Shown here: piece by piece, positions 26,525 to 46,428 of the stretch
Numbering within the stretch: the stretch's first letter is position 1
Layout: each line of letters opens with the position of its first letter
From: Cyanodermella asteris
Taxonomy: Eukaryota; Ascomycota; Lecanoromycetes; Ostropales; Stictidaceae
Assembly (NCBI GenBank): GCA_900618795.1
Contig: UYJD01000009.1
Location: 248,001-312,000 of the forward strand
Length of the DNA: 64,000 bases
Direction: 5' to 3'
Translations under genes and position numbers: made by a program
Notes under the pieces: model-generated
The model's input: the letters and a program-made list of their open reading frames with translations, nothing else
What the model was told of the DNA's origin: nothing
Database searches by the model: none

Positions 26525-27583
26525 ATGAGCGAGCAGATTCAGGTTCGCAGCGCCTGCGAGCCATGCCATGAGCGCAAAATCAGATGCATCACCGGCAACC
26601 AAGGCGGACCATGCCAGAACTGCCAGTCGAGAAATCTCAACTGTTTTTTCCTTCCCAGGTTCAAGAGCGGACGGCGACCACACAAGCACAACAGGCCAGC
26701 CAGCACCTCACAGGCCCCGAGCACATCGGAGCATCCCGAATTCGCCGCTCCACAGGCAGTCACAGGAGATGCTGGCGCCGCACCAGGATTTCCAGTCGCA
26801 CAGGACCCCGTATGCGACAGTCTTCCCTGGACTTGGGACGATTCAATCACACAGAACCCGCTAAGCCATGCCCAATATCAGACATTAACAGATGAGACGG
26901 GCGCACCACTTTCCATGGCAAACTTCTCGATACACCCAAACACTCCGAACCCTTTATCGCCACCATACCAGAGTCACACAAGTCCCGGGGACTATCCGCC
27001 ATCACAGACTGGTGGCCCTAGCAGTACGGGCACGAGCGCTTCACAGTCCGCATCATGGTCGTCACGATCACGATCGCCGCCGGCACGCGAGACTGGGGAA
27101 ACAAAGTTTACAGATCTACTGCACCACTGCTCGAAAATTCAGATGCGCATCACGACAGCACACGCAGTGGCTGCACACTCGTGCAGCACGTCCACGCCAC
27201 ACCCTGGAACCTCCAACACGGAGCTTTCTCGCCTGCTGGAAGACATCGAGGCGGCATGCAATTGCGTCTTCAGCGTCTACGGCTCGAGCGGGCCTTGCAA
27301 GATGCCTGGCGCAGCTGCGCACAACTCCGAGGCGCTCATGTCGCTGGCAAACGCCATGATCATCAAGCTGTTTCAGCTGTACGAGCTGATCCTGGATCAC
27401 GGTCTGCTCACCCAGCCCGGGCTCGACATGCTGCACTCGAAACGCCTCAACCTGTGCAACATCCAGCTGCAAATCGTCATTGCCAGGATACAGCAGCTCA
27501 ACAAAGAAGGAACGCTCATTGAGACATCAATGGCGATCGCCGCGTCGCTCATAGAAGAAAAGCTTAGATGGTTACATAGCTAA
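26525..27583 (+). CDS. Zn2Cys6 (fungal binuclear zinc cluster) transcription factor
   Basis: This single-exon gene encodes 352 residues. The N-terminus holds a complete zinc cluster: Cys11, Cys14, Cys21, Cys30, Cys33 and Cys40 (C-X2-C-X6-C-X8-C-X2-C-X6-C). A basic linker follows (KSGRRPHKHNR). The middle is Ser/Pro/Gln-rich. The C-terminal half is helical with several Cys and His (LLHHCSKIQMRIT, LEDIEAACNCVFSVYG). It is reminiscent of AflR-type pathway regulators rather than the long fungal-specific TF domain. It lies 1.0 kb before the isocyanide synthase gene on the same strand, so it is the likely pathway-specific activator. The zinc cluster is certain; the AflR likeness is tentative. Confidence 0.88.
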   Translation: MSEQIQVRSACEPCHERKIRCITGNQGGPCQNCQSRNLNCFFLPRFKSGRRPHKHNRPASTSQAPSTSEHPEFAAPQAVTGDAGAAPGFPVAQDPVCDSLPWTWDDSITQNPLSHAQYQTLTDETGAPLSMANFSIHPNTPNPLSPPYQSHTSPGDYPPSQTGGPSSTGTSASQSASWSSRSRSPPARETGETKFTDLLHHCSKIQMRITTAHAVAAHSCSTSTPHPGTSNTELSRLLEDIEAACNCVFSVYGSSGPCKMPGAAAHNSEALMSLANAMIIKLFQLYELILDHGLLTQPGLDMLHSKRLNLCNIQLQIVIARIQQLNKEGTLIETSMAIAASLIEEKLRWLHS

Positions 27584-28378
27584 AATAGATTCATTCCTCT
27601 GCCACCACTCTGTTGAATAATCCTAGCCGGGCTGCGAGGCTCCTTGCTTTAAAGTTTAAAGTATTCTTATAGAGTTCCTGGCGAGCTGTGCCGCACCCTT
27701 GGTATGGTGCCATTGCGGGCTTGCAGTAGAGCATGGCGCCAGCTCGTTCACCGCCTCAGGGTCCAGTACCTGGTACGTACCGCTAGAGTCGCCACAGGAT
27801 GCCGGAATCAAGGCACGTTGACAATGTTTGCGTAGTTGGCTTGTTGGTATGTCCGTTTCCGTTGACGCCGCCCGCCCCTCGGATGCCACCGTGCCATTCC
27901 CGCCATGCACGATGCGTTGAGGCTGGCGATCATCTCCCCTTCCCCTCACTCCTCCTCGCTCTGAGACACATGGCTCGCCGTGGGCTTGATCCTTCTTTCG
28001 CTCAGCTAGCCAGCTTCGTATTGCCAAGCCGTGCATCCAACAGCTCGGTCCGGCCCTATGAATTCGGCAGCGTGGATCATTTCTAACTTTGTCCTTCCAC
28101 GCGGTATGCTCAATCCTCTTCATGACTTTCAGCGTTTTACATGGCCGGCCTCGATCTTGCTGACCAGGCTCAACTCGGCTAATACGACATTGTCATCCTA
28201 GCCTCCTCATATAAGCAGTACACTGAGGCGGCGCAGAAAAATGGACCGTATTACTCCGTTAGTACTACAGTGGATCTGACCTGTCCATACAGGGTCCACG
28301 AATTTGTTTTCGCGAAGCCGACGATGCACGGGGAGTTCGAGAAAGTCGTTCATCCTCATGGCGTGATCCGTGCTCTCT

Positions 28379-28397
28379 CCACGCCTTTGTCGCGTGG
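28379..28397. promoter_or_regulatory. Inverted repeat CCACGC-N7-GCGTGG in the isocyanide synthase promoter
   Basis: A perfect 6-base inverted repeat with a 7-base spacer lies about 40 bases upstream of the TATA box. Symmetry and position suggest a site for a dimeric regulator. No factor can be named from sequence. Confidence 0.35.
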
Positions 28398-28437
28398 CTG
28401 TCTCATTCAGCTGCATGTCGAAGACATCTCGAACATG

Positions 28438-28444
28438 TATAAAT
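28438..28444 (+). promoter_or_regulatory. TATA box of the isocyanide synthase gene
   Basis: TATAAAT lies 177 bases before the ATG at 28621, with a CT-rich leader in between. Confidence 0.45.
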
Positions 28445-28620
28445 GTGAACTTGTTCCCAGGGACATGAAGACTGTATCTGAGCACAGCACACCAGTCCTC
28501 ACCTCTCATCGACGCTACATCCTCACCTTTCTCCGCCGAGAAGCAATAATCTCCATCTCTTGATCACAATCTTACTCAATTCCACTTTTTCTCCCCCACA
28601 TACCAACTCCATCCTTCAAA

Positions 28621-29840
28621 ATGGCCACCATGATGCACATGCCCACCGAGTGGGCCCACTCAAACCTCGACAAGAGCTCGCACGACATCTTGACCCCGGT
28701 GCCCGTCCAGATTGCCAACCTCTCCCTTGAACAATCCACAGCCAGCAGCACGCTCGAGATCTCAACCAAGATCCTCGCAATCATCGAGCGATACAAGCTC
28801 GAGAAGGCCGAAGATGCGCACGAGAAGTGGCAGGAGGGTCTGCCCAGATTCCTGGAAGTCATTGGTGCCTTCGTCGAGAAGAAGGCCATGATCCGCATGT
28901 GCCTGCCCGCCTTCCCCTTCAAGTCCGCCAACAAGGTCTACAAGGTGCTTGGTCCGCTGCCCGACAAGGCCGAGGAGCTCTCCCTCCAGCGCCTGAACCA
29001 CATGTGCCAGGAAATCGGCGAGATCTACGCCCCCGGCGCCAAGTTGACCATCATCTCCGACGGCCTCGTCTACAACGATCTGTTGACGGTCTCTGACCGC
29101 GAGACGTGGGCTTACGGACAGCACCTGCGCGCCATTGCGGCCAAGCGATGCGAGTGCATCGACTTCTCCCGTCTGAGGGACCTGGTGGACATTGAGCTGC
29201 CGGAGAAGCTCGACGAGGTCACATACGTTGCCAACTCGACCAACTTCCGTCGCGCCCTGCTCAACCAATTCGGCAGCGACGACTTCGACCCCATCCAGGA
29301 GATTCAGGAGAACGAGGACGCCCGACTGACGTGGATGGGCTACAAGCGCTTCCTCGAGAACGACTTGCAGTACATCTACACCGTCGGCAGCGCAAGGACC
29401 AACAACCAGTTCCGCCGTGACGCAAAGTACCTAGCCGGCGAGATGATCCGCCGCGGCCACGTGAGTAATCCCTCAACAGATACCCCAAAAAAACTTCCTC
29501 TACCCGATTTACTGACTTGCATCAGGCCTTCGCCAACGCCGTCAAGAAGAACTTCCCCGAATACCTCCGCCTGTCCATCCACCAGTCGACTGGCGAGCAC
29601 AAGGTCTCCCTCAACCTGCTCCCGACAACCACCTCGTACACGACGCCATGGCACTGCACCGTCGGCTTCAAGCGCGACGGCACCGTCGTCAGCGCCCCGC
29701 GCGGTGACTTGGAGGAGGATCCCTCGTACGAGATTGCCTACGCCGACGGCCGACCCAGCTACTTTATCGAGCGCGACGACTCGGGTGCGCAGTGGGCAAA
29801 GGCAGACGGCATCAACGCCGAGGTCTACCACGAGCAGTGA
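28621..29840 (+). CDS. DIT1/PvcA-family isocyanide synthase (pyoverdine/dityrosine biosynthesis protein)
   Basis: The product belongs to the DIT1/PvcA family. Bacterial and fungal isocyanide synthases of this family convert an amino acid amine to an isonitrile using ribulose-5-phosphate carbon; yeast Dit1 makes N-formyl-tyrosine for spore walls. Two exons are used: 28621-29460 and 29526-29840, with a 65-nt GTGAGT...CAG intron. This gives 384 residues. Family landmarks include LPAFPFKSANKVYKVLGPLPDK (near residues 98-119), AELSL-type LNHMC helix, TIISDGLVYNDLL (near 142-154), and a C-terminal YTTPWHCTVGF segment. The domain stands alone, with no fused TauD or transferase. Neighbouring regulator, exporter, aminotransferase and NRPS-like genes point to a secondary-metabolite role rather than spore wall. 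The family is secure; isocyanide rather than formyl-tyrosine chemistry is inference. Confidence 0.9.
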
Positions 29841-31029
29841 TGTCGTCTGACCAAGAAATACGGTCGTACTCCGCATTGAGATGTGTCTTTTTGTTTAGCT
29901 CTGAGCGGGATCAATTGGCGTTTGGGTCGGGTAAAATTTTAGAATAGAATCAAGACTGGAATTACTACCAGCCGCCATCGTACGCGGACGGATTCTGCGT
30001 GTACATATTCAAATGAATCGAACAATCAGATCAAATACTTTGGCTTCCGTCTTTCATGCTTAGTGAACTGGACATGCCTGAGATGTCAACATTTGTAACG
30101 TCAGAGTTTGATATGCCTCTGATTTGGCGCCTCATTTTTTTTTTTGGGGGGGGGGTTTGTCTCAAAAAAAGAAAAGACAAATTCAAAAGAAAGCCACCAA
30201 CCCATTTTCACGCGTCGAATTTGTGCTTCCAAAATTTAGGCAATGGACTCTCTTGTCGCTCACGCGACTCGACAATCGAAGTTTACCAGACCACCGGTCA
30301 CGAGAAAAACACGAACGTTACAGTTGCACACAGCGAAACAACACGACGAGGTTGCACGAGCTTTGTGGAGTTTGTTTGTGGGGCCGTTCCCCCCGTCCCA
30401 GAATAATGGCCCACAAGTCCACAAGCCCACGGGGCCACGGGGCCACCGTGGGCTGTGTGTTTCTTTCGCCTTTGCTGCTGATGAAGAACAAGCAACCAAC
30501 CGGTGGATCCGCTCGCAGCCTCGAACTACTGTGCACAGAAGGGCCCTTTTCGGATGGGGGGGTGGGGGCGGCGGGTGCGGGTTTCCCTTGCCTCTACGTA
30601 CCGTAGGTTTTGCATACCCGCCTCGAAAGCACGCTACACCATTCGTGGCAGCGACCGCGAGCGCCGGGTGTAACACGATGCACTGCGTCCAGTCAGCATA
30701 CATACCGGGAAAAAAAAAGAATGGGGACGCCCTGTGAGATTGGTAATGCCAACGGAAAACTTCACTCCGCTTCAAGTCGAAGACTTCGTTATCTCACTGT
30801 GTAACTTCCGGGGCCGAAGTTTCGGAGCACACCGGTCCATGTCGTTCATCCGTTTACTCAACAAAGGTCTTTGGAATTTACGAAGCCATGATTGAAAAAA
30901 AAAGTTGAAATCTATGCATATTGAACAATTGTTGCCCTCCCGCCCAAAAATCAGTATCAAAACACCGTGGAAATTTTTATCCTCCTTTCTAGATCTCAAA
31001 TCATCTGTTTCTGGTACTGTACAGGTTCA
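29841..31029. other. Convergent spacer with homopolymer and G-rich tracts
   Basis: This 1.2 kb lies between the 3' ends of the synthase and MFS genes. It contains a T11-G11-type junction at about 30136-30157, A-rich runs near 30711 and 30896, a G-rich block at about 30549-30578, and several long overlapping frames on both strands that share no domain. No terminal repeats or transposase signature were found. Confidence 0.5.
30549..30578 (+). repeat. G-rich tract with G-quadruplex pattern
   Basis: Four runs of at least three G (7, 5, 3 and 3) are separated by loops of 1, 4 and 3 bases. This fits the usual G-quadruplex rule. The tract lies between convergent genes. Confidence 0.6.
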
Positions 31030-32826
31030 TCATTTCCTCGCACTGAGCCGTTTCCAAGGGTAGAAGAGACCCGCTACCAGAGCGGTGCCGGCAAAGGCAA
31101 TGTCCAAAATGTACACGGCGCGTAGGCCAAACAAGTACGAGTCGATGATACCGGGCACGAGGTCCGCCGGAAAACTGGAACGGACAGCCGTTGCGCCGGC
31201 TGCCAGTACGTCGGTTGGGTTGAGACTCGGCACGAGCTCGGGGATACGCATGAGGAGAAGGTTGTCCAGCAGAGACTGAGCAATGCCGAGACATAAGGCA
31301 GAGCCGATGTTGAAGCTCATCAGTAGCAAGGATGTCGCCGTCGGTACGTCTTCCGGTGCAGCTTGCGACTGGCCCAGGATGATGCCGAGGGGCAGACCGG
31401 CGCCGTAGCCCAGGCCAGCGAGGACTTGGTATCCGATCCACTGAGAAGCTGGAGAGTCGACCCCCAGTGTGTAGATCAGACCGGTGCCGATGGCTCCAGC
31501 GCCGCAGGAGAAGATGATGAGTGGGTGAGCCAGGTGCGTACGCGAGAAAACAAATCCAGCCGCCATAGAGCCAACACCGCAGGCAAGCAAGAAGGGCACG
31601 TTGTGGATACCTGCCTCTGCAGGCGATATGCCTTCAACGGCCTGGAAGTAGAGAGGGATGGCGTACAGGATACTGAACGCAGCACCCTCGAAAAAGAACC
31701 CGAAGATCATTCCAACAACGACCAGGCGCGTCTTGAGCAGCTTGTGCACGATCATGGCGCGGTGGCCCAACACCTTCTCGACACCACAGAGGGCGAGGAA
31801 GAGCACAAAGGCACCGACCAGTAGACCAATGACCTCGGACGAGTTCCATGGAGACGTGATGCCGGCGATCTGCAGAGCGCGCGTGTAGCAAATCAGGGCT
31901 CCGACTACCAACAAGCTGCCCATGTAGTCGATGTACAAGAGCTTCTCGCGGAGCGGTTCCTGTTGCTTTAGCGACGCTTGCTTGGGATCGTGGAAGGAGA
32001 ACAACATGATGAAGCCGGCGACAGCTCCCAACGGTAAGTTGATGTAAAAGCACCATCTCCAAGTAACGTTTCCGGCCAAGGCACCTCCGGCGAGCGGTCC
32101 CACGGCCTGGGCGATGCTGTAGACAGTCGTCACGAGACCTGTGAAGATGGCTCGCAGGTGAGGACGAAGGACCATTGGCATGATGGCATAGCCGCCCGTG
32201 GCGATACCTGCTGCACCAGCGCCTGTCAGGGCACGGCCGATGATGAGAGCGATGGAATTGGGCGCCACGCCGCCGATCAGAGAGCCGACCTCAAAGATAC
32301 ATATTCCCACGATGAATGAGTACTTGGTGGAGAAGTACTGATACACTCGACCCCTAGATAGAGTTAGCTGAGCTTGTCGCCACCTTTCACAGGGTGTGAC
32401 ACATACCAAACGGGCTGAGCGGCTGCTAGAACGATGAAGAAAGCTGCACTGTACCAACCGATGAGGTCGATACCTGGGAAAGTGCTGGTAATGGCAGGAA
32501 TAGCAGTAGCTACAATGGTCTACATGCGTCGTCAGTACTCTGAATTTCTCACGCCCAACGGATCGGCTGGATGCCATCTGAATGGATAGCTGCCCATGCC
32601 TCTGTAAACTCACCATGTCAAGCCCAACCTGGTCACGTCGTTAGCATTTTGCACCAGACCGACATTCAACCACTCAGCTTACCAAGAACAGCGACAGCGC
32701 CACGCCAAAGACGATGATGCTCGTCTTGAACAATCCTGGATAGTCATCATCTGCATCGCTGGCAGTGTCCGCGAGGACGCCACTAGGCTCATCCCTCACA
32801 CGCTTCTCAACGTTTGATTCCTCCAT
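31030..32826 (-). CDS. MFS drug/toxin exporter, DHA2 (14-TMS) type
   Basis: Four exons on the reverse strand (32826-32683, 32628-32614, 32519-32407, 32353-31030) give 531 residues. Introns are 54, 94 and 53 nt with clean GT-AG ends. Exon 2 is only 15 nt (VGLDM) but is needed to build the DHA2 signature GLDMTIVATAIP in the first membrane segment. The antiporter motif appears as AQAVGPLAGGAL, followed by WRWCFYINLPLGA, typical of fungal DHA2 proton antiporters for toxins and drugs. A charged cytosolic N-terminus precedes, and the many membrane segments are consistent with 14. It lies convergent to the isocyanide synthase and divergent from the aminotransferase, so it probably exports the cluster product. 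Substrate cannot be read from sequence. Confidence 0.92.
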
Positions 32827-34100
32827 CGGTGAAGCTGCCTTTGGCAAGAGAGTCGGTGACTAGAGACGCAGGTGCAATAGACGAAGTGGAGAAAGTAGCG
32901 GGAGCAGGTTGATCCTCGCGCAACTTGAGTTTAAAAGGAAGCTAAATGGGATAGCCGGGCAGCTCGGGCAGGAGTCGCTGCAAGATGCTACCGAGAGGCT
33001 GAAGATGCGCATCAGCTGTGGCGCAGACAAGCCGTGGTTCTCCGTTATATCATTACATTATTGTGTGATTCCGATATCGAGACGAGGACGGTTGCGGCAC
33101 AGTAGTGCCGACTGCTGCTGATCGCACCCAGGTCGACCGTTGGATGATGGCGCCACGGTACATATATGGCGGTTGTTGGAGTGTGGAGCGTCCGCTCCTT
33201 TGCGGCAGAGTAGGATTTCCCTGATCCTTGGCCCGAGGTCTCTTCTTCGTCTGCTTCCATGGGTATGAACGCGAGGGGCCGCCAGTCGCCCAAGAATTGC
33301 TGCTACAGGACTAGACCGTGGGGCGAAAGATGACTTGGGCTCCCCCAACGAACACGGCCTGACTCGAGATGGCGACATCTGCAGCTAGACGAGTACAATT
33401 GAAAAATCTCGCTCGCTCTAGCGGCCATTAACGGGCTGAGCAGCGAAGCGCACATGGCTTACTGTACAGGGCACGGCATGTGGCGTCGAGTCGGGCGGCT
33501 GAGCCAGTCGATTGGTGCTCCTGGTGGTTAGGATGCGGCCCATAACTTGAATCCCTCCGACAGAGACGCTTGGATACACCGTCTTGGCTGCTTAAGCTTT
33601 CACCTCACCTCGTGCTCCAACCGACGTCCCAGGAATAAATACCCTGTCGATCAGACGCACCATGGGCGGCCGAATCAAAACTAGGTTTCCGAATGTTTGA
33701 TAATCAGTCTTGTGTGCCACCGCAGTCAGCCAGTCTCACCGTCCGTGTCGTCGATCATGAACGCACTCTGTTACTGTGACGGCGTGGCCGAGAGGGTTTG
33801 CCATGTAGCGAGGACGGACACTTGGAGGCTGACTGTGTTGGAGACCACGATGCGAAGTATCCGGGTCCAAACGGCGCGTTGGAATCCTTTCAACGGTGTC
33901 GACCGCCTCCTTGCAATACTCTATGGGCCTGATATGTTTGTCATCTATAAGCGTGGAGAAGATGATTCTCGAGCTCTTTTGTCTGATTCCGCTTTGGCAT
34001 ATGTTTTGTACCCCAATATTGAAGCAAGTCCGCGAGTGAGAACTCTCTGCATACTGTCTTTCCTCACTTCCAGTTTGCTTTCCGCATTGGCCCAGACAAG
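32827..34100. promoter_or_regulatory. Shared divergent promoter of MFS exporter and aminotransferase
   Basis: This 1.27 kb separates two head-to-head cluster genes and probably controls both. TATAAG at 33946-33951 lies 150 bases before the aminotransferase ATG. An AATAAATA element occurs near 33634. No gene is supported. A tRNA-like GGCGTGGCCGAGAGG word at about 33780 has no matching T arm or acceptor stem. Confidence 0.45.
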
Positions 34101-35492
34101 ATGCGCGTCGAAGTCCCAAATGTGAACGGAGTGCACAACTCTGGCAAACACTACATCAATCTGCAGTGGGGCAAGCCTAACCCGTCTCTGTTGCCCATAA
34201 CGCAGCTAGCTGCTGCTGCGCAAGCGGTATTCGCGGACACGCAGACAGCTGTTGCCTGTCTCGAATACAACGAGCCGCGAGGTCATCTACCGCTGCGCCG
34301 GGAGCTGTCGGGATGGTTGAATCGATTCTACGATGCACAAACGACCACCGACCAACTCTGCATCACTGGCGGCGCTAGCCAATGCCTAGCAACGGTACTC
34401 CAACTTTTCACGGATCCGCCAGTTACCGAGGCAGTCTGGATGATAGAGCCCTGCTACTTCAATGCTTGCCGCGTGTTCGAAGAAGCTGGCCTCACGGGCA
34501 AATTGCGACCTGTGTTGGAGGACGAGCATGGGATCGTTGATCTCGATCGCCTTGAGTACGAGCTGTCGCAGTTCAAGCTCGATACCAACGGCCACAGCTT
34601 GGAGCCCCAGACCAAGCCTCGTGATTCCACGCGTCGCATATATCGACATGTCATCTACGTTGTTCCGACATTCTCGAATCCTGCTGGCGCCGTCATGTCT
34701 CTCGAACAGCGACAGCGCCTCGTCAACATTGCGCGAAAGTACGACGCTCTGATCATCTCAGACGACGTCTACGACGTTCTTCAGTGGCCCGTCGAGGAGC
34801 CTACCAATTCAAGCGAGTTGCAGTCTAAATCGCAGCTTCCCCGGCTCATTGATATCGAACGGCAGCTTCCTCGACTACCGTCGGATCCACGTGGTTTTGG
34901 CCACGTGATGAGCAACGCTAGTTTCAGCAAGTTCATAGCACCGGGTTTACGTTGTGGCTGGGTAGATGCCAGCGAAGCCATAACCTTTGCGCTATCCGAC
35001 GCTGGTTCGACCCGGGGCGGCGGTTGTCCTTCGGGTATCATTGCGCCCATGGTAGCAAGCCTACTGCACGATGGGTCCTTTGACCGTCACATCCGCACCA
35101 CGTTGGTCCCTGCATACCGGAGGCGGCGTGAGTTGATGGTGAACTCAATCAAGGAGCATCTGTTACCGCTTGGCGCCAGACTAGGGCCGAAGATCACCAA
35201 ACAGGAGGGGTCCAACCCGCCCGCGGCAGTAGGTGGCTTCTTTCTGTGGCTTCGGTTGCCGTTTGGCTTGACTTCCAGAGATGTCGTCAACCAGGCGAAG
35301 CAGGAAGAGAATGTGGTCATCCTTCCCGGTATGGCATGTGCGATCGAGGGTCGCGCTGCTGCTGATGTCGCGAATCTGGACAGTCATATCCGCTTGTGCT
35401 TCGCCTGGAGCGAGGAGGAGGATTTGGTCGAGGGAGTTCTGAGGCTCAGGGATGTGATTCAGCGCCTGCAGAAGCTGCAGACAAGTTCATAG
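34101..35492 (+). CDS. PLP-dependent aminotransferase, class I/II (fold type I)
   Basis: This single-exon gene encodes 463 residues and likely moves amino groups between amino and keto acids. The PLP-binding lysine is Lys277 in SFSKFIAPGLRCGW, the classic fold-type I site. Also visible are PTFSNPAG (substrate/PLP contacts), IISDDVYD (Asp and Tyr that hold the cofactor) and HIRLCFAW near the C-terminus (carboxylate-binding Arg). The LITGGASQ-type segment occurs as LCITGGASQCL. The closest familiar groups are the Aro8/Yer152c-like and 2-aminoadipate-type enzymes. No signal peptide is seen. In the cluster it could supply or consume the amino acid used by the isocyanide synthase or the A-T-R enzyme. 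Enzyme class is secure; substrate is unknown. Confidence 0.9.
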   Translation: MRVEVPNVNGVHNSGKHYINLQWGKPNPSLLPITQLAAAAQAVFADTQTAVACLEYNEPRGHLPLRRELSGWLNRFYDAQTTTDQLCITGGASQCLATVLQLFTDPPVTEAVWMIEPCYFNACRVFEEAGLTGKLRPVLEDEHGIVDLDRLEYELSQFKLDTNGHSLEPQTKPRDSTRRIYRHVIYVVPTFSNPAGAVMSLEQRQRLVNIARKYDALIISDDVYDVLQWPVEEPTNSSELQSKSQLPRLIDIERQLPRLPSDPRGFGHVMSNASFSKFIAPGLRCGWVDASEAITFALSDAGSTRGGGCPSGIIAPMVASLLHDGSFDRHIRTTLVPAYRRRRELMVNSIKEHLLPLGARLGPKITKQEGSNPPAAVGGFFLWLRLPFGLTSRDVVNQAKQEENVVILPGMACAIEGRAAADVANLDSHIRLCFAWSEEEDLVEGVLRLRDVIQRLQKLQTSS

Positions 35493-36053
35493 AAGTGCCA
35501 TAGTAGATAGAAAATATACCATAGACTCCAGTTTGTTGCGACCAGGTCCATAAGAAGTTCGCTTCAATGATTCGCGAGATTGCTTCGTTAGGTGAAACCT
35601 GCAGAAAATTGTACGGGTCTCTCCACCTGGAACTCGTCAGAGTCGACGTTGCACGATCCGTGCGGCGGGCACTAAGATGTGGTGGACGTGCGTCTTGCCG
35701 AGAAGGTTTTCCATCGACGCCGGGTCTAGTGTGTATGTGGGCCATCTCACCGATCACTTCTCTTTGAGCACCTTCTTCCACAGACGCTACGTTGCGGCTG
35801 ATTACCGTAAACAACCCGTGTTACGTCTTTCCGTTCGGAACGATGGTAAGCTAGATGGATAGCTCAATCAAGACTCCGATAGACCCTGAGTCTTGACAAT
35901 GCGAACCTGTGCCTTTTAATTGCTTGAAATACTTGACCATCTGGTCTGTCATACTTGCAACGATATCTCCCCCTTACCAACCACATCTTGAGCAACTCAT
36001 TTTATCTCACCCAAGTCCAAGTCTATTCCTACAGCCACATCTCCTTCTACACA
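35493..36053. other. Spacer and promoter before the aldolase
   Basis: No gene is supported. The 3' half is CT- and A-rich and probably holds the leader of the aldolase transcript. Confidence 0.4.
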
Positions 36054-37084
36054 ATGGCTTTCGGAAACGAATATCTCGAGTACCCGCAGAAGGGCATGGC
36101 CGCCTACAAGGCGAGCCATATGCACCAGCCTCACAAAGCACGACAAGCATTCCGCGATGCCCATGAGGGTAGGATCGCACCTCTCACTGCTTACTTCTCC
36201 GCCGCGCCACTCTCGAGGATACTGTCACAGCTCGGAGCCGACATCATGCTTCTCGACTGGGAGCACTCCGCCATGGGTGTTGAGAGCATGACAACAGTGA
36301 GTCTCCAACCGCACCGATCCGAGCTGAAAAGATTCTCGGCACTAACTTCAATCTGCAGTGGGTTCACGAGATTCAGTACATGAGCGAAGGCCGCACCCTG
36401 CCCTTCGTCCGCCTCCCCAACCACGACCACGCCTCCATTGCTTGGGCTCTCGACGCCGGCGCTCACATCATGGTCCCCCAAGTCGAGACCGTCGAGCAAG
36501 CACAAAAGATCGTTGCCGCAACCAAGTTCGGCAACGCCTACAAGCACGCCCGTTCCGTACCTCCGGGACGCCTCATGCCCGGCATTGCCGACCTTCCCGA
36601 GGATCCCAGCCAGTCAGTCTGGGTGAACCAGAACAGACAGGCCGCCGTCGTCATTCAGATGGAGTCTGTTCAGGGAGCTGAGAACCTCGATGCCATCCTC
36701 GCCACTTGCGGCAAGGACATTGACGCCGTATTCATTGGTGCGCTGGATATGCGAACGGATCTGGGCTTGGCGGGTGCTTGGGGTGACGAGAAGGCTTTCA
36801 CGGATATATTGCAGCAGTTGAGAGACACTTGCAAGAAGTATGATGTGCCATTTTCGGGGCCGGTCTTCGGCAAGAACTGGGATCGTGTTGAGGGGCGAGT
36901 GTTTGGTGTTGTGGGTCTTGATATTGGGACTCTCTGGGGCGATCGGGAGATGATCGCTGAGGCTAAGGCTGAGTTCACAAAGGTGCAGAAGGCTCAACTG
37001 GCCAGCACACCCTCGGTGTCGAAGGGTGTGTCAAACGTGGTTGTGAACGAGGTCACGCCCGAGCTTACAAACGGTGTTCACTGA
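36054..37084 (+). CDS. HpcH/HpaI-type class II aldolase/lyase
   Basis: Enzymes of this family make or break C-C bonds between pyruvate-like donors and aldehydes, or cleave CoA esters of the citrate-lyase type. Exons 36054-36296 and 36359-37084, with a 62-nt intron (GTGAGT, CTAAC, TGCAG), give 322 residues. Key motifs are LLDWEHSAMG (catalytic His in DWEH), HIMVPQVETVEQA, VVIQMESVQGAENL (metal-binding Glu) and GALDMRTDLG (metal-binding Asp). All expected catalytic positions are present. An N-terminal stretch of about 45 residues precedes the barrel without a clear targeting signal. It is co-directional with the aminotransferase and the A-T-R gene, so it may build the keto-acid precursor. The substrate is inference only. 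Confidence 0.9.
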
Positions 37085-38154
37085 GAGGCGATTAGAGATT
37101 GATAGCGTTCAAAAGTCAAACTGTTCCCATTCCAAGTCTTCTGTCCCATCTTACGATCGATAAGAGCTATTTCGAAATCTCTCATAGTATGCCATAGATT
37201 GCCATTCGCGTATGTGCATAGATTATATTCGGAATTGTCTTCTCAGTCGTGAACCAGGATTTTGCATAATGTCCAAAAGCTAACGGAGCGTGCAAGGACT
37301 TCCAAATCAGGAAGACAGTGCAATCGCACTCCGAGTGACCGCACTGGAGTTTCAGCTTCGAAAGCTCCATTCCATAGCTACCCTGTCCGCCTATCCTCGA
37401 TAACAATGAGCCTGATGTTCTGAAGCAGGGGTTCGAGCTCTGAGACCGCAATGCCACGTCACGTGCTTTCTCTAGCAAATCCTGCCACGTGATCCGGCCG
37501 ATTATCCCGCGCCATTTCGGCGTATTACTGTCTGTGCCACTTACAGTACACAAGTCAAATGCCTGCGTGCCACGCTACTCTTCCAACAGGGCCCGGATGG
37601 TCCGCAAAGCTATTTCACTAAGTTTGTCGAGTCAGACCGATAACCATCCTTACCTGCGTAGATCCCAACATTGGCTTATGCTAGTCATACAATGTGCATC
37701 AGCGTACTGAGCGGTCTAGGATCGGGATGATGACTTGGATACGGCTGATTCTGGTTTCTGGTCGCGACAATGACAGGATCGATACACCTTTCCGGCAGGT
37801 TTGCCACTATCCGTCGCAGGATCGCGCCAGAGTGACCGTGTTGTTCATCTTCGCCACAGGGAGGTGGAGTAGACTTTCGTGTCTGATTTGAGGTTGAACG
37901 AACGGTTTTGCAGGTACATAGCTTGTTGCACAAATATCGGTGCTTCTCTCCAAGATTTGACTTGAATCCTTTGTTTGTTAAATTCGAGAGACATCTACCT
38001 TTTTAGTCCCCTCATCACCGTGGATGAACTCCGAATCCTGTCTTTCGTCTGTTCTCTGAAAGAGCCTCCACATCCGTCTCCCTGCCATTTATACACATCT
38101 TTCCGGAGGCAGAAGCATTCATCTTGACTGCAGTGTCTCTGACCTGACATCATC
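37085..38154. promoter_or_regulatory. Promoter region of the A-T-R gene with two CACGTG boxes
   Basis: No gene is supported. Two CACGTG palindromes occur at 37460-37465 and 37486-37491, 26 bases apart, suited to bHLH or bZIP factors. A TTTATAC element lies about 70 bases before the ATG at 38155. Confidence 0.4.
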
Positions 38155-41100
38155 ATGGCACAAGATTTTGGGCGCCGATTGATTCCCAACATCATCGATC
38201 AGAGAGCTCGCGATGAGCCGGAGCGCATAGTCTTCTCAATTCCTCTATCGTCGACAAACGCGGCTGCAGGTTACAGGGACATCAGTGCACGTGACTTCGC
38301 AAACGCAGTAAATCGGACGGCGTGGTGGCTCAAGAAAGAGCTTGGAGACGAATCGACGACCGGATCTGTTGCATACATTGGACCCAGTGAGTTCAGTCAT
38401 TGTCTTTGCTAGACCGGATCGCTAACAAATCGTTGCAGATGATATTCGCTACGTGTTGTTAGTGCTAGGCTGTGCAAAAGCAGGCTTTCAGGTAAGATTT
38501 TGCGCTGATGCTTTTCAATTTCACCTGCTGACGAACAAAACAGGCACTCTTGATCTCTCCAAAGAACAGCGCAGAAGCGGCGCTGGCGGTTCTCGAAGCC
38601 GCAAAATGCAACATCTGGGTCACACCGGAGAAGCAGCCCAAGCTTCTCCCGGAGCTGTTGCCAAAGCGCAGCCTTCATGTACTACAGTACGCTTCGGTCG
38701 ATGACTTGCTTCAGCCAGAGCTTGTTCCCGACTTTCCATACAACAAGACCTTCGAGCAGGCTTCTGAAGAAGTACTGTGCATAAACCACACATCTGGATC
38801 GACAGGCCACCCCAAGCCAATTCTATGGAAGCACTCGATGCTTGCAACTTTGGACGCGACCCGCCTTCTGCCCGAAGATCGCGGGCGTCTTCCGTGGACT
38901 ACAGTATTTGAGAAGAACGATCGCTTCTGCTCAATATTCCCCTTCTCTCATACGGCCGGCTGCGTCATGAACATACTCATCAATGCATTTTACGAGACTA
39001 CAAACGTTCTTTGCCCTTCAGAGAAACCGGCCAGTATCGATCTGGTGGACCAATTGCTCGGCAATGTCGACGTGCGGGTCTGGCATATCATCCCATCTAT
39101 CATCGACGAGATTGGCGAGGCTCCAGACATGCATAAGAAATTCTCCAATGCAAAGGTTTTGATTGCATCCGGTGGCCCAGTGACCTACGAGCGCGCCAAC
39201 AAGCTCACCAAGGTCATTCGACTCATCAACATCACAGGCACATCCGAAGGACTTTTCCAAGGTAGTCTTCTACCAGAGCAAGAAGACTGGATCTACTTTG
39301 CCTTCCATCCGTACGCGCATTTCGAGTTCCGCCCTAACGAGTCTGGACTGTACGAGCATTTCGCTGTTCGTGACGAAAAGCATCTTGCTTTGTTCCAGGG
39401 TCTATTTCATACATTCCCTGGTGTCAGCGAGATGAGCTTGAAAGACCTGTACGCGGCGCACCCCACAAAGCCCGACTTGTGGGTCTACAAAGGTCGCACA
39501 GACGATATGGTGGTGCTTTCGAGTGGAGAGAAGGTCTTCCCTGCAGATATGGAGGCTGCTGCTAGCCAGCACCCTGAAGTCAACGCGGCCTTGATGGCTG
39601 GTACCACGCGATTCCAGCCAGTCCTGCTCATTGAACCCACGAAGCCCATCTCTGACACCGAGCGGAATGTCTTCCTTGATAGCGTCTTCGAGGCACTCAA
39701 GGCTACAAACGCATCGGTCGCCTCTTTTGCACGCATTGCGCGAGAATGCCTGATTATCGCTTCTCCGGAAAAGCCGTTCTCCCGGACAGACAAGGGCACC
39801 ATCAAGCGACGTCTGACGATCGACTCCTATGAGAAAGAGATTGCCCAGTGTTACGAGGATCTCGAGGGTCTCGGAAACGGAGAGAATTTCATTGCCATCG
39901 ACTTCGGAACACTTGAGACGACCGCAGCGGGAGTTAAGAAACTGTTGCTCAATGTTATTTCGCCACCGGAGCCCATCACTGATACGACCGACTTCTTCGC
40001 AGCGGGCGTTGACTCTATCGTGGCGACGCGCTTCGTCCACGATCTTCGCCGTTCTGCTCATGCTTTTGACGCCGCCCGGGCTGCAACGATCGAGTTGAAC
40101 AACCGACTCGTCTACGCGAATCCGACCATTGCTCAATTTTCGGACGTCGTCTTCAAGCTCATGACCAACAAGAAGATCAAGCCAGTCAACCCTGTTGACA
40201 TACAAATCAAGCATATGAAGCAACTACGAATCAAGTACGATGCGAAGCTTCCTCGCAATGTCGAAAAGCGAGTGCCTCGTTCAGACCCAGACGGGAACAC
40301 CATCCTACTGACGGGAAGCACTGGCGCCCTGGGCTCATACCTCTTGGAGGAGCTGCTCAAGAAGAAGAACGTCAAGAAGATCTACTGCTTGAACCGCGGA
40401 TCCAACAGCAAGGAACGACAGATCAAGTCAAGCGCATCGTGTGGTCTGCGAACAGACTGGCCTGCTGAGAAGGTGCAGTTCATGGCCATGGATATCACAC
40501 GCCCCAGATTTGGGTTGACTGACGCCGAGTACGACGAACTCCTGCTGAATGTTTCCCATATCGTGCACAACCAGTGGCCAGTCAACTTGAACTTCGATGT
40601 CATCTCTTTCGAGCCTTACATTCGCGGAGTCCGTCATCTGATCGACTTCTCGCTCGAGAGCGACAGAGCGCCGTCACTCACATTCATCTCCACCATGGCG
40701 TGTGTTAGGCACATCAAGAACGTCGATGCGATTCCCGAGAAGCCCGTCGAGGAGCTTCTCCCGTACCCGAGTGGCTACTACGCATCGAAGCAGGTATCGG
40801 AACTCGTCCTCTACCGTGCCTGGGAACGATCTGGAGTCGACATTCGAATCTGCCGTCTCGGCCAGCTGGCCGGACCGGTATTGAGAGGAAACGCTGGAAT
40901 GTGGGCCATGCACGACTGGGTCACCACTGTCATCGCAAGCTCAAAGCGTATCGGTGTCTTGCCCGCAACTCTTGGTGCTCTCGACAGCGTCAAATGGATC
41001 CCCGTCGACGTCATGGCAAACATCATCATCGAGCTCGCCGACTTCAACCTGATCAAGAACACAAAGGCCGCGACAAAGACCAGCATCACGGCCACCGTGA

Positions 41101-41519
41101 AGGAGATCAAAATGGAGAGCACGCCAGTGCCCGCTTGTCCCGCCATGAACGCCGCCTCTCCGAAGACCGGTGCTCCGCGTCAGGACCTCATGCCCGTCTA
41201 CAACGTCACCAACCCCGAGGAGACCAACTGGGCGGCCTTGATCCCGACTGTGCGCACTCGCTTCGGCGACGCCATCACCGAGGTAGTGTCTTGGGTCGAG
41301 TGGACTGAGCGTCTGGCGGCTTCGGAGGCTACAGAGTCGGATCCGGACAAGAACCCGGGTCTGAAGCTGCTGAACTGGTATCGGTCGCCGGAGCTGTTGG
41401 GTACCCCAGCTGTAAGGGCTTCAACGGACAGGTCGGAGACGAAGAGTGGCACATTGGCGGCCCTGCCTGCGGTGGGAGCGAAATGGATGAACACTTGGTT
41501 GGATCAGTGGAACTTTTAG
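38155..41519 (+). CDS. NRPS-like adenylation-thiolation-reductase (A-T-R) enzyme
   Basis: This enzyme probably activates a carboxylic acid with ATP, loads it on a phosphopantetheine arm and releases it reductively as an aldehyde or alcohol. Exons 38155-38386, 38439-38491 and 38544-41519 (two 52-nt introns) give 1086 residues. The A domain shows the A3 loop HTSGSTGHPKP (about 177-187), NITGTSEG, YKGRTDD and the A10-like SRTDKGTIKRR. The carrier site is FFAAGVDSIVATRF with Ser586. The reductase is an extended SDR with LLTGSTGALGSYLLE (about 682) and YYASK (about 840). No condensation domain is present, as in Lys2-like and CAR-like enzymes. It lies in the middle of the cluster and is its only thiotemplate enzyme. 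Domain calls are secure; the acid substrate is unknown. Confidence 0.94.
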
Positions 41520-42434
41520 GTCTGATGAATGTTTTTCGTTTGCGGGAGTACGGGCAGCGGGTTAGGTAAAAGCAATATCTAAGCATCATCGCAAATTTCA
41601 AAACACTTAAAACTTGCAGAGCCTGCATTGGTGTGCTTCTGGCATACGCACGAAGCCGGCGATTATGTGTCTGTCCTGAGATGCGTCCAGTCCTATCGAT
41701 CCGGCTATATGAGGCTGAATAGAAGCTGCGTACTCGTCAGATCGTGTGGTTAGCAATAGTCACCGAGCTCGCCAATGATTGATTGGATTTCGCGTTTTCT
41801 GTGTTGCCGACCAAACGGATTATTGACACGAGTAGCTAACTTGTAGACCCCGACTGGCGCTAGGCGTGTCTGCTGTGACATGTCATGCAGGTCGGCCCTC
41901 TAAAGTGGTCCAGACCAGAACCGCTAAGCAGACTTGACAACAAGACCTGACGAAACCCGTTATATCCTTGTTGAGCGTCAAGGGATCCATTCTCGCTCGT
42001 ATAGTGGCGCGTGGACATTCTGTGGCTGGCTGGCTGGCTGCTGCAGCCACTGGCTCACAGGGAATGCACAGGCGCTCCCAGCTTCAGAGGGAAAGTAATG
42101 AAGTGTGAGCATACTGAAACCACAATGACAGAGATATCGAAGGAGCTGGGAGTCTTCGAATCGATGCAACCTTCGCTGGGTCTACAGGACGCGGCGCAGG
42201 AGTAGTAAAGCTCTTGGTTGCAGCGCCACCACTCCACCCGCTGAGACGGCAGGGATCGTTTGCAAGCAGCTGGACCAATTGGGGATTTTTTTTCCTCGAG
42301 AATGCGTGAGAATAATTTGCAAGACGGCGAATATAATATTGACTTGTCCAATATATAGAAGAAAACTATGCGCCCTTCGCTACGATGGAGCGAGAGGCAC
42401 CACGGTCGAAGAAGCAAATCCTGTGCGCGTCAAG
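41520..42434. other. Spacer and promoter before the lactonase-like gene
   Basis: No gene is supported. A GGCT repeat occurs at about 42022-42043. TATATAG at 42352-42358 lies about 77 bases before the lactonase ATG and is a plausible TATA box. Confidence 0.4.
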
Positions 42435-43432
42435 ATGCGCTTGCTCACCCTCATCACCTGCGCGCTCGGCGTGAGCGCACGAACAATCCTCAACCGAGGT
42501 GCTGACGGTGGCCCTCCCACGGCGACTGCTCGACAGATCTACAGAGGCGAGCCAGGAGCATGGTTTGAGAACTTGCGAGTGAGGAGTAATGGGAAGATCC
42601 TCGCCACTCGTCTCGACAAGGCCTCTCTATACGAGTTTGACCCGAAGACTGGGGCTGCGCAAGTCATCTACAACTTCACAGACTTCACTGGTGCGCTCGG
42701 AATCACCGAATATGCACCCGACGTATTCGCGGTCGTTGCCGGGCTCTTTAATCTGTCGACTTTGACTTCGACAAAGGGCAGTTACACCATCCAGTCGTTT
42801 GATTTCAACAAGCCGCTCGGGCCGGACGGAAAACTGGCGCCAACTCTCCTTGCCAAGGTGCCCCAGGCCTCGTTCCTGAATGGTCTCACGTTCGAGTCGC
42901 CGTCCACCCTTTACGCCGCGGATAGCGGAGCCTTCGAGATCTTCAAGATTGATACCAAGTCTCGGGCGGTCAGCGTAGCCTCGCCGCCCAGCAAGCTATA
43001 CGATAACTCGACAGTCAACTATCCGATCCCAATCGCAATCAACGGCTTGAAGTGGGATGCGGCCGGGAAGCAATTGTTCTGGTCCAATTCCGAGCAAATC
43101 AGCGTTGGCCGCACACCCCGCCGAGAGGACAAGTTTGCGCCTCCGGAAAAGATCGCAAACGGAATAAACGGTACGGGCGTCTTCGACGATTTCGATTTGG
43201 ACTGCGATAGTAACCTATACTTGGCGACGACCGGAGGTCATATAACCTATCTCAGCAAAGACGGCAAGACGCAGGCATTCATCAAGCAGAACAACGTGCT
43301 GAGTTTGGATGGACCAACATCAACACATTTTAAAGAGGTGCTTCCAAGGATGTCCTATACATCGCCACTGGCGGCAATGCAGCTAATGGAACTTCTGTGG
43401 GAGGGCAAATCATCGAATACAGACTCAAGTAG
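42435..43432 (+). CDS. Secreted SMP-30/gluconolactonase-like beta-propeller protein with apparent 3' frameshift
   Basis: The protein starts at 42435 (MRLLTLITCALGVSA, a signal peptide); upstream codons in the same frame are ignored. The body shows SMP-30-like repeats: GAWFENLRVRSNGKILATRLD, then SFLNGLTFESPSTLYAADS, INGLKWDAAGKQLFWSNS and FDDFDLDCDSNLYLATT. After LDGPTSTHF the current frame loses similarity. A one-base shift at TTTTAAA (43328-43334) opens a frame reading RGASKDVLYIATGGN and ending GGQIIEYRLK at TAG 43430-43432, which looks like the natural C-terminus. Without the shift the frame runs to 43496 with a basic, unrelated end. The change equals one missing A and may be an assembly error or a real lesion. 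It is the last gene of the candidate cluster and could hydrolyse a lactone or ester outside the cell. Confidence 0.78.
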
Positions 43433-44814: not shown

Positions 44815-46428
44815 TTAACTGACGGTGCAAGTACCCTTCAATCGTGCCAGCCTGGATCGAGGCGGTGGTGATGCTGGACTACCACTTCCTGGGGCCCGAC
44901 CAAGATCATGGTGGCCACCATTGATTATAGGAACCCCACCACCATTGACCTTCTCAGATGGGGTCCCAGTCCGCAGTGGAGAGTCTGGGGACCCTCTCGA
45001 GCTCTTGGCATCGCCGAAAATCTTTCCGGCAGATTCGACGCAGCCGCCGTATGCGAAGCGGATCAAGGAGTCGCCTGTTAGGCTGCCAATGGCGAAAATA
45101 TTTGGGCCAACCTCGACATTCAACTCGACCTTAGCTCGCAGGGAGTGGCCGGAGATCATTTCGTCTGAGTTATTGTAAGACATACTTGACGATCCATCAT
45201 CCAGAATCTCATGCCTCAAAGAATCCGAGAGGTAGCTGAGTGAGCCTCGTCGACCGATAACATAGGCCAGCGACGAAGCTTCATGCACCACTTTTTCGCC
45301 GCCCGGCAGCTTGAAATGGACCTTCGCGCCACCAGGAACATCCTCAATTGCCTGGATCTCGGCATTAGGAAGCCCAACATAGTTCTGTGACCAGGCCCAT
45401 TCATCAAGAAATTGCTTTTGCTTGCGAGGAGGAGGAGAAACAAGACCTTCCCCGTCCGGATACTTTTTGTTGGCTTGTTTCATCTGTCGATAAACGCTAG
45501 CGTAGTCGGGATACGCTTGTGGATGGCATGCTTGCAGTGGAGACGGTTTCTTGTTTGGCTGCCATCGGAATACATGGACAATCTTGCGCTTTTGGACACG
45601 ACTAATTATCACATCAGCAGCACTGAAGCCTGAGCCAATGACCAAAATAGCCCCAGATGATTCACCGTCACCGTGCTGAAGCGCCGTCAAGGGTTGCAGT
45701 ATAGAAGGAGGTGGAATGAGCTTGGTGAAGATGCCGGACGAGAGCACAAGGTGTCTGCAGGCAAACCCGTGTGACGCTATCCTGAAGCCGTTATCCGTTC
45801 TAGACACGCCACTGACTGTGCCGATGCGGATCGCGTCTTGGATGCCGACAGCGGCTGGATAAGCGGCGAGATAGTCGGCAACTTGTCGTCTCGTTGGACG
45901 TTCGCAGCCTAGAGAAAGTGACTGTTGTGACGTTTTCAGGTGGTCGAAAAGGGTGTATTGTGGGAGAGACAGTTGTTCCAAATAGCTCAAGGTACCAATG
46001 TCCCAACTGGCGTCAACAGGGTTGCTTGCCCACTGCCCGCCGGCTTGACTCGTGTCGCCGATGAGCACATGCTTGACTGCCTTCTCCGGCTCATGGCGCC
46101 AGATTAGTGAGGATGGGTATTCTCCGGGCTCGACGTCAGATAGAGGTCGTAATAGCGTATCCAGTAAGACGTTGACGGGCAAGGCCTGGGTAGAATATGA
46201 TATGCGCGATGCATCAAAGTGTGCTGTCAGCTCCGGTACATCTAACTTCAACAAGCATGGAGATTTGCCAAGTTTTTTATGCAGAATGGTATCAGGATGC
46301 GGGTGCTCCGGATTGTAATAAGGAATATTACCATGCAAGATGAACGACAAAATCAGCGCCGCTGGGCCGGTGCCAATGATAACGGTATCGACGTGACGAT
46401 CGTTTGAGGCGCCATTGGAGGGAGACAT
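44815..46428 (-). CDS. FAD-dependent oxidoreductase, OSGIN-like
   Basis: The frame encodes 537 residues from the ATG at 46428 (MSPSNGASNDRH). An upstream in-frame ATG at 46578 would add 50 residues, but then the FAD loop would not be near the N-terminus as is usual. Motifs are VDTVIIGTGPAALILSF (FAD dinucleotide loop), DTSQAGGQWA, a second dinucleotide loop ILVIGSGFSAADVI (NAD(P)-type), and FAIGSLTGDSLIRFAYGG near the end (flavin contact). These match the oxidative-stress-induced growth inhibitor (OSGIN) group of flavin monooxygenase-like proteins. The last 60 residues are a Pro/Gly/Ser tail. It lies head-to-head with the EngB gene and is not obviously part of the metabolite cluster. Function beyond flavin redox is not known. 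Confidence 0.85.
   Translation of the reverse strand: MSPSNGASNDRHVDTVIIGTGPAALILSFILHGNIPYYNPEHPHPDTILHKKLGKSPCLLKLDVPELTAHFDASRISYSTQALPVNVLLDTLLRPLSDVEPGEYPSSLIWRHEPEKAVKHVLIGDTSQAGGQWASNPVDASWDIGTLSYLEQLSLPQYTLFDHLKTSQQSLSLGCERPTRRQVADYLAAYPAAVGIQDAIRIGTVSGVSRTDNGFRIASHGFACRHLVLSSGIFTKLIPPPSILQPLTALQHGDGESSGAILVIGSGFSAADVIISRVQKRKIVHVFRWQPNKKPSPLQACHPQAYPDYASVYRQMKQANKKYPDGEGLVSPPPRKQKQFLDEWAWSQNYVGLPNAEIQAIEDVPGGAKVHFKLPGGEKVVHEASSLAYVIGRRGSLSYLSDSLRHEILDDGSSSMSYNNSDEMISGHSLRAKVELNVEVGPNIFAIGSLTGDSLIRFAYGGCVESAGKIFGDAKSSRGSPDSPLRTGTPSEKVNGGGVPIINGGHHDLGRAPGSGSPASPPPRSRLARLKGTCTVS

What the first reader, a model, noticed from the sequence alone, without database searches (positions are those of the whole stretch)
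26525..43432. Candidate isocyanide synthase gene cluster with an unusual enzyme set
Seven adjacent genes fit a secondary-metabolite cluster: Zn2Cys6 regulator, stand-alone DIT1/PvcA isocyanide synthase, DHA2 exporter, aminotransferase, HpcH/HpaI-type aldolase, A-T-R NRPS-like reductase and secreted SMP-30-like lactonase. Isocyanide synthases such as PvcA, IsnA, XanB and CrmA are known, often beside P450 or TauD oxygenases. Here neither oxygenase is visible. Pairing of an isocyanide synthase with a pyruvate-type aldolase and a reductive-release enzyme suggests an isonitrile carrying an aldehyde or alcohol. The gene families are read directly; the joint pathway and product are inference.
Basis: partly seen in the sequence, partly recalled or inferred. 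Interest (0 to 1): 0.85.

Follow-up and report, generated by a model that had tools for sequence, protein, structure and literature searches.

The report
Reductive relative of fungal crm isocyanide cluster
A fungal gene cluster pairs an isocyanide-making enzyme with an enzyme likely to turn the acid into an aldehyde and an aldolase likely to lengthen it; two or all three of these core genes are also found together in other, distantly related fungi, so it looks like a real but chemically unexplored branch of a known pathway.

Summary
The isocyanide synthase (ICS) is the only one in the 28.5 Mb genome. No P450 or TauD match lies in the window.

A core is conserved. ICS and A-T-R relatives share a contig in 9 species; in the three where both locus tags are shown they are one or two apart. 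In Xylographa bjoerkii ICS, aldolase and A-T-R are tags 573-574-575; all three share a contig in Aplosporella prunicola and Penicillium lividum.

The A-T module groups with that of CrmA, the valine-isocyanide enzyme, at 100/100, apart from other fungal A-T-R enzymes. CrmA carries a transferase where this has a reductase.

Likely mechanism: ICS makes an alpha-isocyano acid, A-T-R reduces it to an aldehyde, the aldolase adds a pyruvate unit, the aminotransferase may aminate the keto acid. Domains and linkage are shown; the chemistry is inferred.

Corrections: it is a family, not a one-off; 'lactonase' is doubtful; membership of aminotransferase, transporter, regulator and propeller is untested. 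My searches found no report of this enzyme combination.

The parts
26525..27583 (+). Zn2Cys6 transcription regulator gene, 352 aa, one exon (possible pathway regulator; membership untested)
   Evidence: model; PF00172 E 1.3e-6, residues 10-45
28621..29840 (+). Stand-alone isocyanide synthase (DIT1_PvcA), exons 28621-29460 and 29526-29840 (stop included); core gene
   Evidence: PF05141 E 4.7e-95; only copy in genome; 35 of 38 columns invariant in nine other ICS kept; 66% identity to Chaenotheca gracillima protein P0001
28479..28486 (-). Single TGTGCTCA site about 140 bp before the ICS start; A. fumigatus MacA sites have this sequence (PMC6514546, passage). Not above chance
   Evidence: 5 in window, 3.56 expected
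31030..32826 (-).
   Evidence: MFS_1 E 1e-41, TRI12 E 1.2e-14; model
34101..35492 (+). PLP-dependent class I/II aminotransferase, 463 aa, one exon (membership untested)
   Evidence: PF00155 E 2e-21; nearest solved 1vp4, 1x0m, 3aov; MppQ and kynurenine/aminoadipate aminotransferases further down
36054..37084 (+). HpcH/HpaI pyruvate-type aldolase, exons 36054-36296 and 36359-37084; core gene
   Evidence: PF03328 E 1.4e-20; nearest solved 1izc macrophomate synthase E 7.6e-28; DxEH, VRxP, QxES and a later Asp kept; linked relatives
38155..41519 (+). A-T-R NRPS-like carboxylate reductase, 3 exons, 1086 aa; core gene
   Evidence: AMP-binding, AMP-binding_C_3, PP-binding, NAD_binding_4; GVDSI carrier serine, TGSTGALG and YxxxK kept; tree
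42435..43432 (+). Secreted-looking SMP-30-like propeller gene; last part in another frame (possible 53-nt intron 43296-43348 or frame break)
   Evidence: SGL E 2e-6; nearest solved EupfF 7x36 E 5.3e-11 and PycR1 7x2n E 3.7e-8; frame check

Best explanation
This is a fungal isocyanide gene cluster of a conserved kind that is a reductive relative of the crm cluster. The ICS turns an amino acid into an alpha-isocyano acid (inferred from family). The separate A-T-R enzyme activates that acid, holds it on its carrier domain and releases it by NAD(P)H reduction as an alpha-isocyano aldehyde (or alcohol), where CrmA instead carries a transferase domain (domains and kinship shown, substrate inferred). 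The HpcH/HpaI aldolase then adds a pyruvate-type enolate to the aldehyde, giving a 4-hydroxy-2-oxo acid that still carries the isocyanide, and the aminotransferase may convert the keto acid into a gamma-hydroxy amino acid; the exporter and regulator would serve the pathway. Shown: gene content, catalytic motifs, linkage of ICS, A-T-R and aldolase in other fungi, shared ancestry of the A-T module with CrmA's. Inferred: all substrates, order of steps, product, and the part of the four outer genes.
For: Gene models and domains. Of 28 A-T-R rows compared with 87 ICS rows by contig, 9 (9 species) share a contig with an ICS; where both tags are shown they are MMC25_008214/008215, DL771_005417/005416 and MMC18_000573/000575. 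Of 29 aldolase rows compared, 5 share a contig with an ICS and 3 of these also with the A-T-R enzyme; in Xylographa bjoerkii the tags run 573 ICS, 574 aldolase, 575 A-T-R; a sixth (Pestalotiopsis fici 08074/08077) lies near an A-T-R gene. A-T tree: window in a 13-row A-T-R clade 100/100; that clade with the CrmA / A-T-transferase rows and three further A-T-R rows is 100/100 apart from six other A-T-R enzymes. Two A-domain segments are alike in most linked A-T-R and CrmA-type rows (FPxxHxAGxxMN, WSxxPSxVDE) and differ in the five other A-T-R rows; the window's own copies are FPFSHTAGCVMN and WHIIPSIIDE. Aldolase tree: window in a 21-row clade 99/99 that holds 6 of the 7 linked rows out of 100 rows. 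ICS residues kept.
Against: In 6 of the 9 ICS/A-T-R species none of the 120 listed aldolase rows (245 hits) is printed with the same contig (by eye); in Agyrium rufum the aldolase is on another contig, so the aldolase is frequent, not universal. Linked aldolases are not a clade of their own (7 changes; 500 of 500 shuffles as low). The ICS tree does not settle the window's side: A-T-R-linked group 59/52, and placing the window with the crm side is not rejected, p-AU 0.364. The window's proteins sit on long branches (A-T 0.84, ICS 0.44), so activity could have drifted. No shared promoter motif above chance. No expression or product data. The four outer genes have no linkage evidence. On large contigs (P. 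lividum 6.5 Mb, Coccidioides 3.4 Mb) same contig alone is weak. The CrmA paper leaves the acyltransferase for mannitol open (PMC9381783 section 13), so the role of CrmA's own A-T-transferase part is not settled either.
Confidence: 0.62

Rival explanations
1. Same cluster, other order: aldolase and aminotransferase first build an unusual amino acid (aldehyde plus pyruvate, then amination), which the ICS converts to an isocyanide and the A-T-R enzyme finally reduces.
For: An aldolase plus aminotransferase pair is a known way to gamma-hydroxy amino acids (recalled); gene content fits equally.
Against: Six of nine ICS/A-T-R species show no aldolase on that contig among the listed hits, so ICS and A-T-R may work without it, which favours the aldolase as later tailoring; the A-T module is kin of one fused to a valine-using ICS (PMC9381783).
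Confidence: 0.2
2. Only ICS, aldolase and A-T-R form the pathway; the regulator, exporter, aminotransferase and propeller protein are chance neighbours, and the product is a small isocyano aldol or lactone. (Overlaps with the best explanation except for the aminotransferase step.)
For: Only these three have linkage evidence; no shared promoter motif; propeller gene has a frame problem.
Against: All four lie between or right beside core genes in one 17 kb block with unrelated-looking genes on both sides; MFS genes and zinc-finger factors are common in ICS clusters (about 60% and 21.3%, PMC10153163 section 21).
Confidence: 0.3
3. The ICS homolog is a spore-wall Dit1-type enzyme and the block is not a secondary-metabolite cluster.
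For: Pfam name and many automatic database names.
Against: 46-66% identity to the 120 listed hits, among them XanB-type fusions; sits among XanB- and CrmA-type rows with a long branch to bacterial ICS; no adjacent P450. Dit1 itself not in the tree.
Confidence: 0.03
4. The A-T-R gene is an ordinary aryl-acid carboxylate reductase of another pathway that lies here by chance.
For: Its reductase domain is closest to a solved 'acetyl-CoA synthetase-like protein' reductase, 8aep; the genome has many NAD_binding_4 matches (22).
Against: Relatives share a contig with an ICS in 9 species, and its A-T module falls with CrmA's, not with other A-T-R enzymes.
Confidence: 0.05

Closest known systems
crm cluster / CrmA (Aspergillus fumigatus; valine isocyanide, fumivalines, fumicicolins; PMC9381783: abstract and sections 6, 11, 13 read)
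   Same: ICS of the same fungal branch; A-T module of the same 100/100 group.
   Different: CrmA is one fused protein with ICS, A, T and transferase domains; here ICS and A-T-R are separate, a reductase replaces the transferase, and an aldolase is present; no crmB, C or D counterpart was recognised in the window's Pfam scans.
GCF 8 of Nickles et al. (Fusarium; stand-alone ICS beside an NRPS gene; PMC10153163: abstract, sections 20, 21, 23, 31 and passages read)
   Same: Stand-alone ICS next to a separate NRPS-like gene.
   Different: Their text says that NRPS gene has a domain identical to crm's and links GCF 8 with terpene synthases; no aldolase or lichen is mentioned in the main text; supplements not read.
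xan cluster / XanB (xanthocillin; PMC5974471, passages only)
   Same: Related fungal ICS.
   Different: XanB is an ICS-dioxygenase and works with P450 XanG; both absent here.
dit superfamily (Dit1/Dit2; PMC10153163 section 23)
   Same: Same Pfam family (PF05141).
   Different: No P450 beside the gene; ICS apparently of the other branch (Dit1 not tested directly).
Macrophomate synthase (1izc) and bacterial HpaI/GarL aldolases
   Same: HpcH/HpaI family; aligned catalytic motifs kept.
   Different: 100.8 bits only; 1izc is on a very long branch from the window's group; reaction here unknown.
EupfF and PycR1 (EupfF: fungal intermolecular hetero-Diels-Alderase, PMC9733591 passage; PycR1's role and the propeller fold are recalled)
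   Same: Weak sequence kinship of the secreted propeller.
   Different: No tropolone pathway seen here; gene possibly frame-broken.

Membership tests
Isocyanide synthase (PF05141) | DIT1_PvcA domain over its full length | tested here: met
   E 4.7e-95, profile 2-270 of 273
Isocyanide synthase (PF05141) | Residues invariant across PvcA, 9dhm, XanB-like, CrmA, one A-T-transferase-linked and four A-T-R-linked ICS | tested here: met
   35 of 38 kept; departures at 238 (W), 260 (T), 327 (G)
Isocyanide synthase (PF05141) | Isocyanide formation in vitro or in vivo | not testable with these tools
   none
crm gene cluster family | ICS fused to A-T-transferase | tested here: not met
   separate genes, reductase instead of PF02458
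crm gene cluster family | A-T module of CrmA lineage | tested here: met
   joint clade 100/100 against six other A-T-R
dit superfamily | adjacent Dit2-like P450 | tested here: not met
   no P450 match in window; lowest match on C3 at 705080 (92 of 164 candidates scored)
dit superfamily | ICS in the dit/bacterial branch | tested here: inconclusive
   window lies with XanB/CrmA-type rows away from two bacterial ICS, but no Dit1 row was available
xan type | ICS-TauD fusion and P450 | tested here: not met
   single-domain ICS; no TauD on C3; no P450 in window
HpcH/HpaI aldolase | domain plus Asp/Glu metal ligands and catalytic His/Arg motifs | tested here: met
   PF03328; DWEH, VRLP, QMES, GALD aligned with 1izc; residue roles recalled
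A-T-R NRPS-like carboxylate reductase | A, T and R domains with carrier Ser, cofactor motif and YxxxK | tested here: met
SMP-30 lactonase | lactonase activity / metal site | not tested
   weak SGL match; EupfF/PycR1 nearest among solved proteins

The most novel reading that the evidence does not exclude
A whole branch of fungal isocyanide clusters makes alpha-isocyano aldehydes by reductive release and then builds new carbon chain onto them by pyruvate aldol addition followed by transamination, giving isocyanide-bearing gamma-hydroxy amino acids or lactones: an isocyanide pathway with enzymatic C-C extension of the isocyano acid, for which my searches found no published example.
Probability: 0.33. 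Interest if true: 0.75.

Novelty: new variant of a known kind. Interest (0 to 1): 0.6.

Why it matters
Fungal isocyanides bind copper and include antimicrobial and phytotoxic compounds, and many ICS homologs have no known product (PMC9381783 section 13). An ICS, A-T-R and aldolase core linked in Xylographa, Aplosporella and Penicillium lividum, with two of the three linked in further lichen fungi, Coccidioides, Xylaria, Monosporascus and Apiospora, points to an unexplored product class. It also gives a natural experiment: lineages that share ICS and A-T modules but differ in the release domain (transferase against reductase). The aldehyde and aldol steps can be tested with three genes in a laboratory host.

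Tried and rejected
Shared promoter motif among the seven upstream regions: k-mers, CGG/CCG dyads and copper-type motifs gave nothing clearly above 20 letter shuffles or 12 other promoters with roughly placed starts (transporter and aminotransferase share one divergent region, so their counts are not independent). TGTGCTCA before the ICS is one of 5 in the window with 3.56 expected: not evidence. Isocyanide hydratase nearby: 5 DJ-1/PfpI matches in the genome, none in the window. Right-hand flavoprotein-like ORF 44818-46590: no Pfam match above cut-off (best E 0.06), no NCBIfam match at 0.001, no PDB match at E up to 1; left out. A first reading of the ICS tree as a clean A-T-R clade (93 in the quick tree) was dropped after the careful tree gave 59/52. 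Fisher tests (aldolase-linked 5 of 24 against 0 of 108; A-T-R-linked 8 of 24 against 1 of 108; transferase-linked or fused 0 of 24 against 19 of 108; aldolase tree 5 of 20 against 1 of 78) ignore shared ancestry and unseen context and are not leaned on. A literature search with two of three loose terms gave 118 papers, of which only 5 were listed; none of the five held 'pyruvate aldolase'.

Rows dropped: for the contig comparison I entered 87 of the 120 listed ICS rows (553 hits in all), 50 of 76 A-T rows (28 reductase, 22 transferase) and 29 of 120 listed aldolase rows (245 hits in all); left out were mainly TauD fusions, CrmA fusions, near-copies, unnamed fragments and lower-ranked aldolases. 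The aldolase tree used 98 of 120 rows plus window and 1izc; the ICS tree all 120 plus 12 CrmA-type rows, window and 2 bacterial rows; the first A-T tree 75 of 76 rows plus window; the careful trees 51 and 36 rows that I chose after seeing the quick trees. Contig identity was judged by equal printed contig length and species, not by reading the contigs.
Full report
What is there. The block 26525-43432 holds seven genes: Zn2Cys6 regulator, ICS, MFS exporter (the only one on the minus strand), class I/II aminotransferase, HpcH/HpaI aldolase, A-T-R NRPS-like enzyme and a secreted-looking SMP-30-like propeller; all but the last give clean models. On both sides the recognisable genes look unrelated: a Blm10/PSME4 proteasome activator, an ELO protein and an aspartyl protease to the left; a GTPase, an alpha/beta hydrolase, choline kinase and others to the right. 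The ICS is the only PF05141 gene of the 28.5 Mb genome. No P450 or TauD match lies in the window (the P450 search scored 92 of 164 candidates), nor does a DJ-1/PfpI (isocyanide hydratase-type) match.

Is it more than chance? Genomic context of other fungi cannot be fetched here, so I used the contig lengths and locus tags that the protein search prints. Many of the best ICS relatives and A-T-R relatives come from the same species and contigs: Chaenotheca gracillima, Xylographa bjoerkii, Penicillium griseofulvum, P. lividum, Coccidioides posadasii, Agyrium rufum, Aplosporella prunicola, Xylaria sp. FL1042 and Monosporascus sp. 5C6A, that is 9 of 28 A-T-R rows compared. Where both tags are shown they are adjacent in Agyrium (008214/008215) and Monosporascus (005417/005416) and two apart in Xylographa (000573/000575). 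The aldolase search fills the gap: Xylographa 000574 is the aldolase. Aplosporella and P. lividum also have all three on one contig; Heterodermia (007303 ICS, 007301 aldolase) and Apiospora marii have ICS and aldolase on one contig; Pestalotiopsis fici has A-T-R and aldolase three tags apart. Against this, 6 of the 9 ICS/A-T-R species show no listed aldolase on that contig, and Agyrium's is on another contig. Seven other ICS rows share a contig with an A-T-transferase enzyme instead. On multi-megabase contigs same contig is weaker evidence than neighbouring tags.

Kinship. In the A-T tree (careful, 36 rows) the window falls in a 13-row A-T-R clade at 100/100; that clade, three more A-T-R rows (two Monosporascus, one Pestalotiopsis) and 14 CrmA / A-T-transferase rows (100/100) make one group at 100/100 that excludes six other fungal A-T-R enzymes; the order of the three inside is open. 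So this A domain belongs to an ICS-associated family and not to the general carboxylate reductases. The ICS tree fits but is less clear: the crm side is 100/98, the A-T-R-linked side only 59/52, and moving the window to the crm side is not rejected, p-AU 0.364. The A-T-R-linked ICS may thus be a grade from which the crm type arose by exchanging a reductase for a transferase and later fusing with the ICS; PMC10153163 (section 20) already suggests the fusion step. The aldolase sits in a 21-row clade (99/99) with 6 of 7 linked rows, apart from 79 other rows that hold the seventh; the linked rows are scattered in that clade among rows whose context I could not see, and the label test gave no clustering (7 changes, 500 of 500 shuffles as low).

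Enzyme state. The ICS keeps 35 of 38 columns that are invariant in nine other ICS. The A-T-R protein keeps the carrier serine, the TGSTGALG cofactor motif and YxxxK; its A4 segment reads FSHTAGCVMNIL where CrmA has MSHGAGIIMNIL. It has no Asp at the usual amino-group position, judged by eye and from recalled numbering, which fits an acid without a free amine such as an isocyano acid. The aldolase keeps DxEH, VRxP, QxES and the later Asp in line with macrophomate synthase (residue roles recalled). Branches of the window proteins are long, so they evolve fast.

Mechanism. CrmA makes valine isocyanide, (S)-2-isocyanoisovaleric acid, that ends up on mannitol or an ergot alkaloid (PMC9381783, abstract and sections 6, 11, 13 read; the authors call the mannitol acyltransferase as yet unknown). 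By kinship the window's ICS should make an alpha-isocyano acid and the A-T-R enzyme should reduce it. A pyruvate aldolase beside it has an obvious job: add an enolate to that aldehyde. An aminotransferase could then aminate the 2-oxo acid. This order is inference; the reverse order is a rival. The propeller is closest among solved proteins to EupfF and PycR1, so I would not call it a lactonase, and its gene may be broken.

Literature. Searches for 'isocyanide synthase' with 'thioester reductase', 'aldolase', 'reductase domain' or 'carboxylic acid reductase' found no paper, nor did a five-term search; the library lacks most subscription papers. In PMC10153163 the word aldolase does not occur in the main text; its supplements were not read, so this family may be among its unnamed clusters. 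The lichen survey PMC12711211 mentions isocyanide once, in a figure legend.

Verdict. Real, conserved in its three-gene core, and a new variant of a known kind: a reductive, often aldolase-linked relative of the crm cluster.

Noticed in passing
relatives P0018, P0028, P0038, P0051, P0055, P0064, P0066: Seven ICS relatives carry an ABC-transporter N-terminal domain (PF14510), and one of them (P0064) also an ABC domain (PF00005), in the same predicted protein: a neighbouring ABC transporter merged in annotation, or a true fusion.
   Followed up: no
window 42435-43432: Propeller gene changes frame near 43296-43348; intron with poor donor or a frame break.
   Followed up: partly
window 28479-28486: TGTGCTCA (MacA-type copper site) about 140 bp before the ICS start; not enriched in the window.
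   Followed up: partly
window 44818-46590: Minus-strand 591-aa ORF beside the cluster with no Pfam match above cut-off and no PDB match; by eye GxGxxA motifs suggest a flavoprotein.
   Followed up: partly
window 61658-62248: Stretch that translates to X in part, i.e. masked or unknown bases.
   Followed up: no
P0205: Nearest aldolase relative by identity (71% over 61% of the query) is an unnamed 222-aa protein on a 17.5 kb contig; perhaps the closest sequenced relative of this cluster.
   Followed up: no
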